This document shows positions 3,287 to 24,980 of a DNA stretch of 32,181 nt, piece after piece (position 1 is the stretch's first letter; the number at the start of each line of letters is the position of its first letter). The position numbers were made by a program, and so were the translations under genes. Below the pieces are notes generated by a model. The model ran no database searches, was not told the origin of the DNA, and saw only the letters and a list, made by a program, of their open reading frames with translations. The DNA comes from Candidatus Eremiobacteraceae bacterium (GTDB lineage: Bacteria; Vulcanimicrobiota; Vulcanimicrobiia; Eremiobacterales; Eremiobacteraceae). The stretch lies in assembly GCA_036511855.1 (NCBI GenBank), contig DATCBN010000003.1, forward strand, positions 1 through 32,181, written 5' to 3'.

Positions 3287-5038
3287 CTAGATCTCCATGA
3301 CGACGGGCACGATCATCGGCCGCCGCTTGGTGCGATCGTACACGAACTTCGACAGTCCTTTATGGATGTGTTCGCGGATCGCGGTCCATTCCGTCAGGCC
3401 TTTGGCGGCGCCTTCCTCGATGATGCCGCGCGCTTCGCGTCGCACCTCATCTAAAACGCCGTCGCTTTCGGACGCCTGATCGAATGTGAATCCGCGCGAG
3501 ACGATGTCGGGACCGGCAAGCACTTTGCCGTCGACGCTATCGATGCTCACCGTCACGATGATCATGCCGTCGCCCGAGAGATGGCGGCGGTCGCGCAGCA
3601 CGACCTGGCCGACGTCGCCTACGCCCAGTCCGTCGACGTACACCGGGCCTGCGGCCGTCTTACCCACCTTCGCGGCCTTGCCGTTCTCCGTGAATTCGAT
3701 GACGTGACCGTTCTCGACGACGAAAACGTCGTCGGGATGGATGCCGGTCTTTTGCGCCAGCCGCGCGTGCTGCACGAGCATGCGATATTCCCCGTGCACG
3801 GGGATGAAATATCGCGGTTTGGTGAGGTTGAGCATGAGCAGCAGCTCTTCTTGGCAGCCGTGTCCGGAGACGTGCGCCATGCGGTCTTTGCCGTAGATGA
3901 CGTTGACACCCAACTTGAACAAGTTGTTGATGGTGCGGCCGATGCTGCGCTCGTTTCCCGGAATGGGCGTGGCCGAGATGATGACCGTATCGCCGCGCAC
4001 CAGTTTGATCTTGCGGTGGTCGCGGGCGGCCATACGCGTCAGCGCCGACATGGGCTCGCCCTGGCTGCCCGTGGTGCAGATCACGATGCGCTCGGGCGGA
4101 TGCGAATCGATTTCGTGCTCGCGGATGAGCTGACCGGGCGCGATGGTGAGGTACCCGTGCTCCATCGCGATGTTCGAAACGTTGAGCATGCTGCGGCCGA
4201 CGAAACACACCTTGCGGCCATGGCGTGCGGCGGCGTCCACCGTTTGCTGCAAGCGCGGAACGTTGGAGGCGAACATCGTGACGATGATGCGCCCTTCAGC
4301 GCGAGCGAAGATGTCCGCGAACGTCTCGCCGACGACGCGTTCCGAGAGTGTGTGGCCGGGGATTTCCGAGTTGGTCGAGTCGGAGCACAGCAGCAGGACG
4401 CCTTCATCTCCGTAACCGGCAAGCGCGGCGATATCGGTGGGCTTGCCGTCGATCGGCGTTTGATCGAATTTGAAATCGCCGGTATGGACGACGGTGCCAA
4501 GCGAGGTGCGCAAAGCGATGACGCACGCTCCCGCCACGCTATGCGTGATGTTGCTGAAGTGCGCGTCGATCTGGCCGACCCGTACGGTTTCGCCGGCCTG
4601 GACCGTGATGGTCTCGACGCTGGCCAGCTTGTGTTCTTTGAGTTTGCCGCGCAAGAGCGCGAGCGTGAAATCGGTGCCGTAGACGGGCACCTTGAGCTGA
4701 GCGAGAAAATACGGCACGCCTCCGATGTGGTCTTCGTGCGCGTGCGTGAGCAGCAAACCGCGGATCTTGCGCTTGCGCTCGAGCAGATAGGTGATCTCGT
4801 CGATGACAAGATCCACCCCGAGCATCTCTTCTTCGGGGAACTGTACCCCTGCGTCTACGACGAGGATATCGTCGCGGGTCTCGTAGACCGTCATGTTGCG
4901 GCCGATCTCGCCGCAGCCGCCTAAGGGGATGACCCGGAGATAATCTTGATCGCGGGGCGGCTCGGGCAACGGATTGTTCGCGTCGCGGGGACCCGCGGCG
5001 GGGAAATACTCATGTAGCATGGGACGTTGCTTAGCCAT
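3287..5038 (-). CDS. rnj: Ribonuclease J (metallo-beta-lactamase/beta-CASP)
   Basis: Cytoplasmic RNase with 5'-to-3' exonuclease and endonuclease activity in mRNA decay and rRNA maturation. It is 583 residues, slightly longer than the usual 550-560 because of an N-terminal Pro-rich extension (about 30 residues). The metallo-beta-lactamase core begins at IPLGGCGEIGRNM. The zinc motif is H99-A-H101-E-D103-H104. Further signatures are NITHSVAGACVIAL, HTGDFKFD, the beta-CASP region (LLLCSDSTNSEIPGHTLSE; CTTGSQGEPMSALTRMA) and the late motif FIPVHGEYRML. The C-terminal domain ends in KFVYDRTKRRPMIVPVVMEI, typical of RNase J. The ATG start at 5038 is chosen because the downstream Met7 has no ribosome-binding site. 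Confidence 0.97.
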   Translation of the reverse strand: MAKQRPMLHEYFPAAGPRDANNPLPEPPRDQDYLRVIPLGGCGEIGRNMTVYETRDDILVVDAGVQFPEEEMLGVDLVIDEITYLLERKRKIRGLLLTHAHEDHIGGVPYFLAQLKVPVYGTDFTLALLRGKLKEHKLASVETITVQAGETVRVGQIDAHFSNITHSVAGACVIALRTSLGTVVHTGDFKFDQTPIDGKPTDIAALAGYGDEGVLLLCSDSTNSEIPGHTLSERVVGETFADIFARAEGRIIVTMFASNVPRLQQTVDAAARHGRKVCFVGRSMLNVSNIAMEHGYLTIAPGQLIREHEIDSHPPERIVICTTGSQGEPMSALTRMAARDHRKIKLVRGDTVIISATPIPGNERSIGRTINNLFKLGVNVIYGKDRMAHVSGHGCQEELLLMLNLTKPRYFIPVHGEYRMLVQHARLAQKTGIHPDDVFVVENGHVIEFTENGKAAKVGKTAAGPVYVDGLGVGDVGQVVLRDRRHLSGDGMIIVTVSIDSVDGKVLAGPDIVSRGFTFDQASESDGVLDEVRREARGIIEEGAAKGLTEWTAIREHIHKGLSKFVYDRTKRRPMIVPVVMEI

Positions 5039-15176: not shown

Positions 15177-15224
15177 GAGGGCAAGGATCGCTTGCCCTAA
15201 TGGTGAGCGTTGATCAACCGCTCG
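15173..15224. repeat. Composite palindromic repeat after the ABC operon
   Basis: GTAGGAG (15173-15179) leads into a diverged copy of the family palindrome, GGGCAAGG-ATC-GCTTGCCC (15179-15197). A second hairpin with arms GAGCG and CGCTC around TTGATCAA follows within 30 bases. The same order of two hairpins is seen at 2277-2338. It may end transcription of the operon, although no T-run follows. Confidence 0.75.
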
Positions 15225-15270: not shown

Positions 15271-15299
15271 TTGACGATTGGCACTCTCGATGCTATAGT
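15271..15299 (+). promoter_or_regulatory. Sigma70-type promoter of the htrA-dnaK operon
   Basis: The -35 box TTGACG (15271-15276), 17 bases of spacing and the -10 box TATAGT (15294-15299) form a good vegetative promoter. The CIRCE operator overlaps the spacer and the -10 box. Transcription should start near 15306, giving a leader of about 210 bases before htrA. Confidence 0.85.
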
Positions 15300-15304
15300 G
15301 CTAA
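15278..15304. promoter_or_regulatory. CIRCE element (HrcA operator)
   Basis: TTGGCACTC (15278-15286), nine bases, then TAGTGCTAA (15296-15304). The CIRCE consensus is TTAGCACTC-N9-GAGTGCTAA, so 16 of 18 arm positions match and the spacing is exact. It overlaps the promoter, where bound HrcA would block RNA polymerase at normal temperature. The hrcA gene itself is not in this window. Confidence 0.92.
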
Positions 15305-15516
15305 AAGCGGGAAGGGACGGCAAAGCTGGAGTCGGTCCGTGGGACGCGAACCCGCATATATTGGCGGAACATTCACCCTCATTTTCGGGTACAACCATTA
15401 GGGCAGCATATTCCGCGCCGTGAGCCGCCGGATTCATGGTCGACTGGCGTCGGCCAAGCTGAAATTCGAAGCGAGATTCACGAGCGCGAACCACATAACA
15501 GGAGTCGAAATTTCAC
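15305..15516 (+). promoter_or_regulatory. Long structured 5' leader of htrA, possible RNA thermometer
   Basis: About 210 bases without a convincing gene. Early in the leader, GCGGG (15307-15311) can pair with CCCGC (15351-15355), and GCGGAA (15364-15369) with TTCCGC (15411-15416). Next to the start codon, TGAAATTCGA (15460-15469) can pair with TCGAAATTTCA (15505-15515), ten pairs with one bulged A. The right arm lies exactly between the ribosome-binding site AGGAG (15500-15504) and the ATG at 15517. An A/U-rich helix over the initiation region of a heat-shock gene is the layout of an RNA thermometer. The pairing is visible in the sequence; the function is inferred. Confidence 0.5.
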
Positions 15517-16716
15517 ATGGCATCGCAAACGCGCACGTCGCTGGGATTCGCATTAACGGGCATCCTCGGCGTGCTGATCGGGGCGCTCATCGTTGCTTGC
15601 GGATCCGGCAAATTGCTGGGTACCGCAGATAGCCCGACGGCCAGCGTCGCCGCCGCCGCGTCGTTACGCGGCGTCGTCAATCCCGACCTCGAGCAGCGCA
15701 TCATCAGCGCAGTCAAGCAAGCTGAGCCGTCGGTCGTGCTCATCAAATCGACCGTGCATGGCGTGCAGCAGTATCCCTTCGGCAACGACCCATTCTTCAA
15801 GCAGTTCTTCGGGCAAGGTAACGGCGCGCAGCCGTACACCGCTCATGCCTCCGGTTCGGGTTTCATCTACAAGCACGACGGCGATACCGCGTACATCGCC
15901 ACGAACGCGCACGTCGTTTGGAAGGCCGACAACATCGAAGTGCTGCTTTCCAACGGACGTAAGTTCCCCGGCACGGTCGTCGGCAAAGACATCCAGGACG
16001 ACCTTGCGCTCGTGAAGATCACGGGCTCCGATCTGCCGGCAGCGCTTCCAATCGGCGATTCGAAAGCGCTTCAACAGGGCGAATTCGTGTTGGCAATCGG
16101 CGAGCCGGTCGAATTGCAGAACTCGGTTTCCTTCGGCATCGTCGCCAACGTCGACCGGCAAGGTATTGCGGCGGGCGGCCAAGACGGAATTCCGGCCATC
16201 CACTACAGCGACTTGATCCAGATCACCACGCCCATCAACCCGGGCAACTCCGGCGGTCCGCTCATCACCGACACCGGTGAAGTGGTCGGCATCAATGCTG
16301 TCGTCGACTCGGGCGCGCAGAACATCGGCTTCGCGGTGCCCATGCACAACGCCGCGCCGATCCTCGCCGACATCCACAGCGGCAAATATATCGCAGCCAC
16401 GCATCCGTTCATCGGAGTCCAGATGGCGGCGCTCGATCAACGCTGGCGGAACTACCTCAACTATTCCGGCAAGACGGGCGTGCTCGTCGCGGCAGTCGTC
16501 GCAGGCAGCCCGGCCGACCAGTCCGGCCTGCAGCAAGGCGACGTCATCCAACAGATCAACCGCGAGACGGTCAACTCGCCCGACGACGTGACAAAGATGA
16601 TCAAGGCCATGAAGGTCGGAGAAAAAGTCGCGCTGGTCGTCTGGCGGCAGGGGTCCGTGCAGCCCGTCGACGTGACGCTCGGCGACGAGAACAACTACAG
16701 CATCCCGCAAGGGTGA
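15517..16716 (+). CDS. htrA: HtrA/DegP-family serine protease with PDZ domain
   Basis: Envelope protease or chaperone that degrades misfolded proteins, 399 residues. The N-terminus has a hydrophobic segment ending LIGALIVAC-GSG. This fits a lipobox with Cys28, so the protein may be a lipoprotein; otherwise the segment is a membrane anchor. The trypsin-like domain has the complete triad: His132 (TNAHVV), Asp162 (DDLALVKI) and Ser245 (GNSGGPL). One PDZ domain follows at about residues 290-390 (FIGVQMAALDQRW; GVLVAAVVAGSPADQSGLQQGDVI). It sits behind a CIRCE promoter and 92 bases upstream of dnaK, so it is probably the first gene of the heat-shock operon. That is not the usual place for htrA. 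Confidence 0.95.
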   Translation: MASQTRTSLGFALTGILGVLIGALIVACGSGKLLGTADSPTASVAAAASLRGVVNPDLEQRIISAVKQAEPSVVLIKSTVHGVQQYPFGNDPFFKQFFGQGNGAQPYTAHASGSGFIYKHDGDTAYIATNAHVVWKADNIEVLLSNGRKFPGTVVGKDIQDDLALVKITGSDLPAALPIGDSKALQQGEFVLAIGEPVELQNSVSFGIVANVDRQGIAAGGQDGIPAIHYSDLIQITTPINPGNSGGPLITDTGEVVGINAVVDSGAQNIGFAVPMHNAAPILADIHSGKYIAATHPFIGVQMAALDQRWRNYLNYSGKTGVLVAAVVAGSPADQSGLQQGDVIQQINRETVNSPDDVTKMIKAMKVGEKVALVVWRQGSVQPVDVTLGDENNYSIPQG

Positions 16717-16735
16717 TATATTCAGTTAAGTAGTA

Positions 16736-16780
16736 GGGCAAGCAACGCTTGCCCTAAACTTGGGCAAGCGTTGCTTGCCC
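16736..16780. repeat. Inverted pair of palindromic repeats between htrA and dnaK
   Basis: GGGCAAGC-AAC-GCTTGCCC (16736-16754), seven bases, then its exact reverse complement GGGCAAGC-GTT-GCTTGCCC (16762-16780). RNA could form either two small hairpins or one 19-bp stem. No T-run follows directly, so it need not terminate fully. It could attenuate transcription from htrA into dnaK or protect mRNA ends after cleavage. Confidence 0.9.
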
Positions 16781-16808
16781 TAATACGATTTCGGAGGAAT
16801 CAACCAAC

Positions 16809-18674
16809 ATGGCAAAAGTCGTCGGCATAGACCTCGGCACGACAAACTCAGTTGTGGCGTGCATGGAGGGGACGACGCCCACAGTCATCACCAACGCGGA
16901 AGGCAGCCGGCTCACGCCGTCGGTCGTTGCGTTCACGAAGAGCGGCGAGCGGCTCGTCGGCCAATTGGCCAAGCGTCAAGCGATCACCAATCCCGATCGC
17001 ACCGTGGCATCGATCAAACGTCACATGGGCACCGATTTCAAAGTGACCGTGGACGGCAAGAACTATACGCCGCAAGAGATCTCCGCCATGGTGCTGCAGA
17101 AGCTCGCGAACGACGCGAGCACGTACCTCGGCGAAAAAGTCACGCAGGCAGTCATCACGGTGCCCGCTTATTTCAACGACGCCCAGCGTCAGGCCACGAA
17201 AGATGCCGGACGCATCGCGGGACTCGAAGTGCTGCGCATCATCAACGAACCCACCGCGGCGGCGCTCGCGTACGGCCTCGATAAAAAAGGCAACGAGACC
17301 ATCCTCGTCTGGGACCTCGGCGGCGGCACGTTCGACGTGTCGGTCCTCGAAGTCGGCGACGGCGTGTTCGAAGTGAAGTCCACCAACGGCGACACGCGGT
17401 TGGGCGGCGATGACTACGACAAGCGTATTGTCGAGTGGCTCGTCGCTGAGTTCAAGAAGGACCAGGGCATCGACCTCGGCGGCGACCGCCAGGCTTTGCA
17501 GCGCCTCACCGAGGCCGGCGAAAAAGCGAAGGTCGAATTGTCATCCATGACCCAGACGTCCATCAATCTTCCGTTTGTCACGGCCGATCAAAATGGGCCG
17601 AAGCACATGGACTACACGCTGACCCGCGCGAAGTTTGAGCAACTCACTGCCGATCTCACCGAGCGCTGCCGCAAACCGTTCGAGCAAGCCTTGGCCGATG
17701 CAAAACTGTCGATAAGCGAAATCAATGAAGTGGTGCTGGTCGGCGGCTCCACGCGCATGCCCGCCGTCGTCGATCTCGTCAAGCAATTGACGGGCAAAGA
17801 TCCTCATCAGGGCGTCAACCCGGACGAAGTCGTCGCGGTCGGCGCGGCCATTCAGGCCGGCGTGCTCTCCGGCGACGTCAAGAACGTCGTGCTCCTCGAC
17901 GTCACGCCGCTCTCGCTCGGTTTGGAAACGCTCGGCGGCGTCATGACGAAGCTCATCGAGCGCAACACCACCATACCTACTCGCAAAGCGCAGACCTTCA
18001 CCACCGCTGAAGACGGACAGACGTCCGTGGACATCAGCGTGTTCCAAGGCGAGCGTGAGATGGCGAGGGCCAATAAGGCGCTCGGCCAGTTCCGGCTCGA
18101 GGGCATCGCGCCCGCGCCGCGCGGCATTCCCCAGGTCGAAGTCGCGTTCGACATCGACGCCAACGGCATCACCCACGTGAGCGCCAAAGACATGGGCACC
18201 GGCAAGGAACAGCGCATCACGATCACGGCTTCGAGCAATCTCTCAAAAGACGAAGTCGACCGTATGGTGCGCGAGGCCGAATCCCACGCCGACGATGATC
18301 ACAAGCAGCGTGAAGCAGCCGACATCAGCAATCGCGCCGACCAGCTGGTGTACGTGACCGAAAAGACACTCAAGGAAGTCGGCGACAAGGCTGTCGCCTC
18401 CGATCGTCAGGACGTCGAAAAAGCGCTTGAAAATCTTCGCTCGTTGCTGAAGACCGGCACGCCCGAGGAACTCACGAAGGCGTCCGATCAGCTGCAGGAA
18501 GTCTCGCTCAAACTCGGCCAGCACATCTACGACCAAGCCAAGGCGAGCGGTGACGCGCAGGGCGCCGCGACCGGCAACGGTGCGACGTCCGCCGACGGCG
18601 CTCAGTCCGACGCGGGTGCGCCATCCGCTCCTCCTGACGGTGACGTCATCGACGCCGAATTCAAGGAACGGTAA
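16809..18674 (+). CDS. dnaK: Chaperone DnaK (Hsp70)
   Basis: ATP-dependent Hsp70 chaperone, 621 residues, normal length. The nucleotide-binding domain starts [17 protein letters not shown] and contains [32 protein letters not shown] and [15 protein letters not shown]. The substrate-binding domain starts after the linker [11 protein letters not shown] and includes [21 protein letters not shown] helical lid and an Ala/Gly-rich tail end in [12 protein letters not shown], close to the EEVD-like ends of bacterial DnaK. Ribosome-binding site GGAGGA (16793-16798) is ideal. No separate CIRCE or HspR (HAIR) site is visible directly upstream, so transcription probably comes from the htrA promoter. Confidence 0.98.
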
Positions 18675-18683
18675 GGCCCGCGC

Positions 18684-19247
18684 ATGGCCGATCTAAATCC
18701 GCTCGACGAATACGATTCACTTTCGGGCTCTCCGCTCTCCGGCATCGACGACGTCGCGCCCGCCGATAGCGCTTCCGCAGATGCCGGACTGCAGTCCGAG
18801 CTTGCCTCCGCGAAAGCGCTGGCGGAGGAGAATCGCAACCTCTACCTGCGCGCGCTCGCCGATTTCGACAACTACAAAAAGCGCGTGGACCGCATGATCT
18901 CCGACCGCTCCGATGCCGGACGGCGCGACTTGCTCAAGCGCATCTTAGACGTGCTGGATAGTCTCGATCGCGCGGCCGCCTTCCGCCAACAGGGCGCGCC
19001 GCCGGAACAGCTCGTCGACGGTTTGCTCGCCACCGCCAAGCAGTTCGCCACGATATTGGAAACCGAAGACGTACGGCCGATCGACGTCGTCGGCAAGCAG
19101 TTCGATCCGGCCGTGGCGGAGGCCGTCGGCACCCGCGCAAATCTCGATGTGCCCGATCACACCGTGCTCGACGAAGCGCGCAAGGGGTACCGCATCGGTG
19201 ACGACGTATTGCGCCCTGCGCAGGTCATCGTCTCCGTCGGCGACTGA
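18684..19247 (+). CDS. grpE: Nucleotide exchange factor GrpE
   Basis: Releases ADP from DnaK. It has 187 residues. The acidic, disordered N-terminus (about 1-40) is followed by a long dimerising helix (LQSELASAKALAEENRNLYL; RALADFDNYKKRVDRMISDR). The C-terminal beta domain contains KQFDPAVAEAVGTRANLDVPDHTVLDEARKGYRIGDDVLRPAQVIVSVG; only its general pattern is cited because it is the GrpE signature. It starts 9 bases after the dnaK stop codon and is clearly co-transcribed. Confidence 0.96.
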   Translation: MADLNPLDEYDSLSGSPLSGIDDVAPADSASADAGLQSELASAKALAEENRNLYLRALADFDNYKKRVDRMISDRSDAGRRDLLKRILDVLDSLDRAAAFRQQGAPPEQLVDGLLATAKQFATILETEDVRPIDVVGKQFDPAVAEAVGTRANLDVPDHTVLDEARKGYRIGDDVLRPAQVIVSVGD

Positions 19248-19281: not shown

Positions 19282-20304
19282 ATGTCCGTCCAATTCAAGG
19301 ACTACTACAAGGTTCTCGGTGTCCCTAAGACGGCTGCGACAAAAGAGATCAAGTCGGCGTATCGTAAGCTCGCGCGCAAGTGGCATCCGGACGTCAACCC
19401 GACGAAAAAAAAAGAGTCTGAAGATAAGTTCAAAGAGATCGCCGAGGCCTACGAGGTGCTCGGGGACGCTGAAAAGCGAAAGACCTACGACACCTTAGGG
19501 CCCGACTGGCAGTCGCGCGCGCAACCCCCTCCCGGATATCAGCAATGGTCCACGCAAGGCGGGCCGCAGGGAGTCCACTTCGGCAACGGCGAGTTCGCGG
19601 ATGAGGGATTCTCCGATTTCTTCCAGCAATTCTTTGGAAACTTCGGACATACGCCCGGTGCGCCGACCACAGCCGGGCGGCGCGGTCAACGCGGAAGGCG
19701 AGGTCAGGACATCGAGTCCGAATTCTCGTTGAGCTTGCGCGAGGCGTACGCCGGCGGACAACGCTCGCTCTCGCTGCAATCGCAAACGCAGTGCCCTCGC
19801 TGTCATGGCACCGGCACTGAAAACGGCAAGCTTTGCCACCAATGCCACGGAACGGGCGCGGTTAATTCGCAGCGCACCCTCGACGTCACGATTCCCCCAG
19901 GCGTCCGCGACGGTCAGCGGATCCGGCTGTCCGGTCAGGGCGGCCCAGGCATGGGCGGCGGTCAGAGTGGCGACCTTTACCTCATCGTGCGCATCACGCG
20001 CGACCCAACCTTCGAGCGCCGCGGCGACGATTTGTACGAAGAACATCCAGTCAGCGTCTACACGCTCGTGCTCGGCGGTGAGATCACCGTGCCGACGATG
20101 ACCGGACATATAGACGTCAAAGTGCCCGCCGGTTCGCAAAACGGCCGCACGCTGCGCATCGGCGGCAAGGGAATGCCGCGGGTCGCAGCGGGCGGAGGCT
20201 TCGGCGACCTCTACGTAAAGCTCGTGGCGCAAGTGCCCACAAATCTTACCGACGATGAGCGCGAGTTGTTCAAGCAACTCGCGGAGAAGGCAAAGGCTCG
20301 CTGA
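19282..20304 (+). CDS. dnaJ: J-domain co-chaperone DnaJ with reduced zinc finger
   Basis: Stimulates DnaK ATPase and delivers substrates. It has 340 residues, shorter than the usual 370-380. The J domain (about 6-73) has His35-Pro36-Asp37. A Gly/Phe/Gln-rich region (about 80-130) follows. The cysteine-rich region holds only two CxxCxGxG motifs (Cys171/174 and Cys185/188), separated by a short loop. Canonical DnaJ has four such motifs and two zinc sites, so this protein can form at most one. The C-terminal substrate domain is complete ([40 protein letters not shown]). Its stop overlaps the next ATG as TGATG. Confidence 0.95.
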
Positions 20305-24952: not shown

Positions 24953-24980
24953 GTAGGGCAAGCGATGCTTGCCCTCCTAC
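24953..24980. repeat. Palindromic repeat copy
   Basis: GTA precedes GGGCAAGC-GAT-GCTTGCCC (24956-24974), and TCCTAC follows. It is in the gap between the convergent PLP-enzyme and DUF1579-like genes. Confidence 0.9.

What the first reader, a model, noticed from the sequence alone, without database searches (positions are those of the whole stretch)
15271..15304. CIRCE operator over a sigma70 promoter upstream of htrA rather than dnaK
The CIRCE arms match 16 of 18 consensus positions with exact N9 spacing, and they overlap the promoter. CIRCE normally precedes groESL, hrcA or dnaK. Here the first gene is an envelope protease, so HrcA would link cytoplasmic and envelope protein quality control in one operon.
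Basis: partly seen in the sequence, partly recalled or inferred. Interest (0 to 1): 0.6.

Follow-up and report, generated by a model that had tools for sequence, protein, structure and literature searches.

The report
HrcA operator driving htrA-dnaK operon
In one family of soil bacteria the classic heat-shock repressor site (CIRCE) sits exactly on the promoter of a four-gene operon that begins with a cell-envelope protease and continues with the DnaK chaperone machine, so one heat-shock switch probably controls protein repair both inside the cell and in its envelope.

Summary
A CIRCE element (16 of 18 arm positions, N9 spacer) lies at 15278-15304, interleaved with a sigma70-type promoter (TTGACG, 17 bp, TGCTATAGT) upstream of htrA-dnaK-grpE-dnaJ. 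It is not chance: no match in 100 shuffles. The genome has an HrcA gene and only two other sites of this quality, before hrcA-dnaJ2 and groESL. All 13 loci of the family for which sequence is held keep the CIRCE/promoter block (94% mean column identity, against 51% and 44% in the flanks). The gene order htrA-dnaK-grpE-dnaJ is shared by the whole class, but the CIRCE is not: 24 loci from two sister families lack it and instead carry, between htrA and dnaK, a conserved, covarying leader RNA with no Rfam match. So control of the dnaK operon was rewired. An ECF-sigma-like promoter motif lies between CIRCE and htrA (15366-15391), so htrA probably has two promoters. Verdict: a real, conserved new variant of the HrcA/CIRCE regulon; moderate interest.

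The parts
15271..15276 (+). -35 hexamer TTGACG of promoter P1
   Evidence: Scan; TTGAC conserved in all 13 family loci
15278..15304 (+). CIRCE element (HrcA operator), arms 15278-15286 and 15296-15304
   Evidence: 2 mismatches of 18, 0 expected; 94% mean column identity across 13 family loci, flanks 51% and 44%
15291..15299 (+). Extended -10 TGCTATAGT of promoter P1, overlapping the CIRCE spacer and right arm
   Evidence: conserved in most relatives
15366..15391 (+). Putative second promoter P2, ECF-sigma-like: GGAAC-N16-GGGTA
   Evidence: Motif upstream of htrA in 11 of 13 family loci (shuffled mean 0.62, max 3) and 13 of 24 sister-family loci (shuffled mean 0.93, max 5)
15517..16716 (+). htrA: trypsin-like serine protease with one PDZ domain, N-terminal hydrophobic segment with a lipobox-like IVAC, and TNAHVV, DDLAL and GNSGGPL motifs
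   Evidence: Pfam, NCBIfam, translation
16734..16782 (.). Intercistronic 21-bp hairpin made of dispersed palindromes; no T-run after it
   Evidence: -50.4 kcal/mol, z -10.7; palindrome family counted
16809..18674 (+). dnaK
   Evidence: NF001413 967 bits over cut-off 648
18684..19247 (+). grpE
   Evidence: PF01025 1.1e-38
19282..20304 (+). dnaJ, last gene of the inferred operon; the next gene is on the other strand
   Evidence: Pfam DnaJ and DnaJ_C

Best explanation
P1 at 15271-15304 is a housekeeping-sigma promoter whose core is occupied by HrcA at a CIRCE operator when the cell is unstressed. The operator overlaps the extended -10, so bound HrcA would exclude RNA polymerase. When unfolded protein titrates the chaperonin GroE that keeps HrcA active (established for HrcA in other bacteria), HrcA leaves and a long transcript htrA-dnaK-grpE-dnaJ is made together with groESL and hrcA-dnaJ2. 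HtrA degrades misfolded protein in the envelope and DnaK-GrpE-DnaJ refolds protein in the cytoplasm. A second, ECF-type promoter P2 between CIRCE and htrA would let envelope stress raise the same operon independently. Shown here: the operator, its conservation, hrcA, the three-site regulon and the gene order. Inferred: HrcA binding, P1 and P2 activity, and read-through into dnaK.
For: CIRCE beyond chance. hrcA present. Exactly three sites at up to 1 mismatch genome-wide, with no hits to the reversed control pattern in this genome; the other two precede hrcA-dnaJ2 and groESL. CIRCE/promoter block selectively conserved in 13 of 13 family loci. htrA-dnaK adjacent in all family loci not cut by a contig end. 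No promoter-like site in the window's htrA-dnaK gap. dnaK has a single full copy in this genome.
Against: No expression or binding data. The strong hairpin in the window's gap could cut or attenuate the transcript. P2, if real, makes htrA partly independent of HrcA. A dnaK promoter of unusual type in the gap would have been missed by the sigma70 scan.
Confidence: 0.85

Rival explanations
1. The CIRCE controls htrA alone: the intercistronic hairpin ends or trims most transcripts, and dnaK is made from its own, unrecognised promoter, as in the sister families.
For: Strong hairpin between htrA and dnaK in the window. Sister families mostly have a 193-476 bp gap (longer in a few) with a dedicated leader before dnaK.
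Against: The hairpin has no T-run. In other family members the gap is as short as 12, 31 and 36 bp, too short for a promoter and leader. No promoter-like site in the window's gap. The dnaK leader RNA is absent at f1 dnaK loci.
Confidence: 0.1
2. The operator is real but htrA is driven mainly by the ECF-type promoter P2; HrcA control from P1 matters chiefly for dnaK-grpE-dnaJ, and htrA is merely passed through because it lies in between.
For: P2-like motif enriched in the family and in part of the sister families; P1/CIRCE found only in the family with the shortened htrA-dnaK gap.
Against: P1 lies upstream of htrA, so htrA is necessarily co-transcribed from it. P2 is a motif match only.
Confidence: 0.3
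3. Chance resemblance or a decayed site without function.
For: Two mismatches to consensus.
Against: Zero expected matches; conservation far above the flanks; mismatches of the same kind occur in the groESL and hrcA sites of this genome.
Confidence: 0.01

Closest known systems
HrcA/CIRCE class I heat-shock regulon (groESL; hrcA-grpE-dnaK-dnaJ), e.g. Geobacter (PMC545781)
   Same: Same operator consensus and spacer, same repressor family, groESL and the dnaK operon as targets
   Different: Here hrcA is apart (with a second dnaJ) and the dnaK operon starts with htrA. In the cited delta-proteobacteria the listed targets are groESL, hrcA-grpE-dnaK-dnaJ and rpoH, with no htrA
HrcA target extension in other lineages (rpoH in G. 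sulfurreducens, PMC545781; added predicted targets in Chlamydia, PMC8762339)
   Same: The CIRCE regulon gains further genes by lineage
   Different: No envelope protease among the targets in the passages read
Envelope-stress control of htrA/degP by ECF sigma factors (general knowledge)
   Same: An ECF-like promoter motif precedes htrA here
   Different: Here it lies downstream of a CIRCE-controlled promoter in an operon with dnaK

Membership tests
CIRCE/HrcA operator | TTAGCACTC-N9-GAGTGCTAA, few mismatches, exact spacing | tested here: met
   2 of 18 mismatches, N9
CIRCE/HrcA operator | Overlaps or adjoins the promoter or translation start of a heat-shock operon | tested here: met
   Interleaved with -35/-10 ahead of htrA-dnaK-grpE-dnaJ
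CIRCE/HrcA operator | hrcA in the same genome | tested here: met
CIRCE/HrcA operator | groESL also under CIRCE (constant member of the regulon) | tested here: met
   C111:11811, groES and groEL downstream
CIRCE/HrcA operator | HrcA binds and represses; relief on heat shock | not testable with these tools
   Needs EMSA or footprint and transcript mapping
Canonical dnaK operon of the HrcA regulon | Operator directly ahead of hrcA, grpE or dnaK | tested here: not met
   First gene is htrA; hrcA is on another contig
ECF-sigma-dependent promoter (P2) | -35 GGAAC/GCAAC and -10 GTA at 15-17 nt, conserved | tested here: inconclusive
   Motif enriched, but the pattern was chosen on the same alignments and the cognate sigma factor was not identified

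The most novel reading that the evidence does not exclude
Within one class of Vulcanimicrobiota/Eremiobacterota the dnaK operon exists under two mutually exclusive controls: HrcA/CIRCE ahead of htrA in one family, and a previously undescribed structured dnaK leader RNA between htrA and dnaK in its sister families. A DNA-level repressor and an RNA-level element would have replaced each other at the same operon, and the CIRCE form makes HtrA part of the HrcA regulon.
Probability: 0.55. Interest if true: 0.6.

Novelty: new variant of a known kind. Interest (0 to 1): 0.45.

Why it matters
HrcA is usually thought of as a controller of cytoplasmic chaperones. Here, in a poorly studied phylum, an envelope protease heads the HrcA-controlled dnaK operon, and the arrangement is kept across a whole family. 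It is a clear comparative case of heat-shock rewiring: the gene order stays fixed while the control changes between a repressor site and a leader RNA. It also points to a candidate new dnaK leader RNA that can be tested directly.

Tried and rejected
(1) A separate dnaK promoter in the window's htrA-dnaK gap: none found by the sigma70 scan. (2) The idea that the window's htrA 5'UTR (15305-15340, AAGCGGGAAGG...GGTCCG) is a moved copy of the sister-family dnaK leader RNA: rejected, since the covariance model finds nothing in the window or at any f1 dnaK locus and the stretch is not conserved in f1. (3) The weak f1 hit of the leader model in G002:C20 (26 bits): it lacks the core motif and does not precede dnaK. 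(4) Rfam matches in the region (FourU, mir-266 and others): all far below gathering scores and lying on the palindrome hairpin. (5) htrA-dnaK with CIRCE outside the phylum: among 80 HtrA loci from public genomes only the same-genus locus L110 has dnaK nearby; that scan reaches only HtrA relatives. (7) RNAalifold on the raw leader alignment gave no useful structure because the arms are misaligned; the structure was set by hand and tested by covariation.

Full report
What is there. The window is contig 3 of a 3.07-Mb, 96% complete draft genome. A close relative (83% HtrA identity) is titled Candidatus Eremiobacterota (L110). At 15278-15304 lies TTGGCACTC-N9-TAGTGCTAA, a CIRCE element with 2 of 18 mismatches; 100 shuffles gave no match. 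It is interleaved with TTGACG-N17-TATAGT preceded by TG. The genes behind it are htrA, dnaK, grpE and dnaJ on one strand, followed by a gene on the other strand. HtrA has a trypsin-like domain, one PDZ domain, the motifs TNAHVV, DDLAL and GNSGGPL, and an N-terminal hydrophobic stretch ending in a lipobox-like IVAC. It scores below the curated cut-offs of the named HtrA/Deg models, so it is called simply an HtrA-family protease.

Regulon. The genome encodes one HrcA (TIGR00331 322.9 bits). With at most one mismatch in the core there are three CIRCE sites and none for the reversed control pattern: this one, one whose right end touches the hrcA start codon (hrcA-dnaJ2), and one behind a TATAAT ahead of groESL. 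dnaK has one full copy, and it is in this operon.

Conservation. In the family (f1), all 13 loci with sequence upstream of htrA, the window included, carry a CIRCE with 1-2 mismatches at the same place. Mean column identity is 94% in the 27-bp element against 51% and 44% in the 40 bp on either side; TTGAC and, in most, the extended -10 are kept too. The usual right-arm mismatch is a -10 base, so the site seems a compromise between operator and promoter (inference). The htrA-dnaK gap in f1 is 12-154 bp.

Relatives outside the family. The order htrA-dnaK-grpE-dnaJ, often with macB-macB-ABC upstream, is also found in the two other families of the class examined (f2, f3; 24 loci), but none of these dnaK loci has a CIRCE even at 4 mismatches. 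Their CIRCE sites precede groESL and hrcA-dnaJ2 and, in several genomes, hsp20-like genes. In other classes of the phylum dnaK usually lies beside grpE, without htrA upstream or CIRCE in the stretches read. In a DnaK tree f1 is the sister of f2+f3 (support 91/84) and each family is one clade. The tree is thus compatible with a single switch, but which state is older within the class cannot be decided; the lack of CIRCE at outgroup dnaK loci weakly favours a gain in f1.

What f2 and f3 have instead. Between htrA and dnaK (gap mostly 193-476 bp) lies a leader with the core GTAAGCGGCAAGGC...GCTGGTCC close to the dnaK start. A hand-set structure (P1 of 10 bp, P2 of 7 pairs) is supported on 32 sequences: 93% of cells paired, 11 pairs with changes on both sides, 67 such cells against 19.6 in shuffles, and all slid controls far lower. 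That alignment was fitted to the model, but the eight-sequence MAFFT alignment behaves alike. Strong hits in the class lie at dnaK; the weak off-site hits looked at are spurious. Seven of these loci, searched against Rfam, gave no relevant match.

Second promoter. In f1 a motif GGAAC/GCAAC-N15-17-G(G/A)GTA lies between CIRCE and htrA in 11 of 13 loci (shuffled mean 0.62), and upstream of htrA in 13 of 24 f2/f3 loci (0.93). It resembles ECF-sigma promoters (general knowledge). The pattern was chosen after looking at these same alignments, so its enrichment is somewhat flattered.

Mechanism. Best reading: HrcA on CIRCE blocks P1 in the unstressed cell, and stress releases htrA-dnaK-grpE-dnaJ together with groESL and hrcA-dnaJ2, while P2 adds envelope-stress input. 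Operator, repressor gene, regulon and conservation are shown here; binding, promoter use and read-through are inferred. The chief caveat is a 21-bp hairpin between htrA and dnaK in this genome, made from a palindrome with 449 copies at up to 2 mismatches in the genome. It has no T-run and is not needed for the arrangement, since relatives have gaps as short as 12 bp.

Known or new. CIRCE, HrcA and their chaperone targets are textbook. In the papers read (PMC545781, PMC10602874, PMC3842655, PMC8762339, PMC9004370, PMC7464140; passages found by term, not whole papers) and the searches made no htrA-headed CIRCE operon was found; the library holds only openly licensed papers, so absence is not proof. 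I rate it a new variant of a known kind.

Noticed in passing
L090-L109, L190-L196, L198, L215-L218 (upstream of dnaK in sister families f2/f3), e.g. L103:3948-4048: Conserved structured leader RNA directly upstream of dnaK (core GTAAGCGGCAAGGC...GCTGGTCC, 10-bp covarying P1, P1 base next to the ribosome-binding region); no Rfam match in the loci tested, not found at f1 dnaK loci. Candidate new dnaK leader RNA.
   Followed up: partly
window 16734-16782, 15178-15198, 2282-2302, 24955-24975: Dispersed palindrome AGGGCAAGC-N3-GCTTGCCCT, 449 copies at up to 2 mismatches in the 3.07-Mb genome (control 1); two copies form the hairpin between htrA and dnaK.
   Followed up: partly
window 15366-15391 and the same place in relatives: ECF-sigma-like promoter motif upstream of htrA, enriched in the class.
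   Followed up: partly
L221, L225, L231, L232, L238, L088: CIRCE sites ahead of hsp20-like genes in relatives: a further lineage extension of the HrcA regulon not seen in the window's genome. Gene identity read from the translations by eye, not by a family search.
   Followed up: partly
L230:1197-1505: CIRCE-like site ahead of an FmdB-like zinc-ribbon protein in an f2 genome.
   Followed up: no
L077:4175-4201 and 4264-4290: One family member (G008) has two CIRCE elements in tandem, 89 bp apart, upstream of htrA.
   Followed up: no
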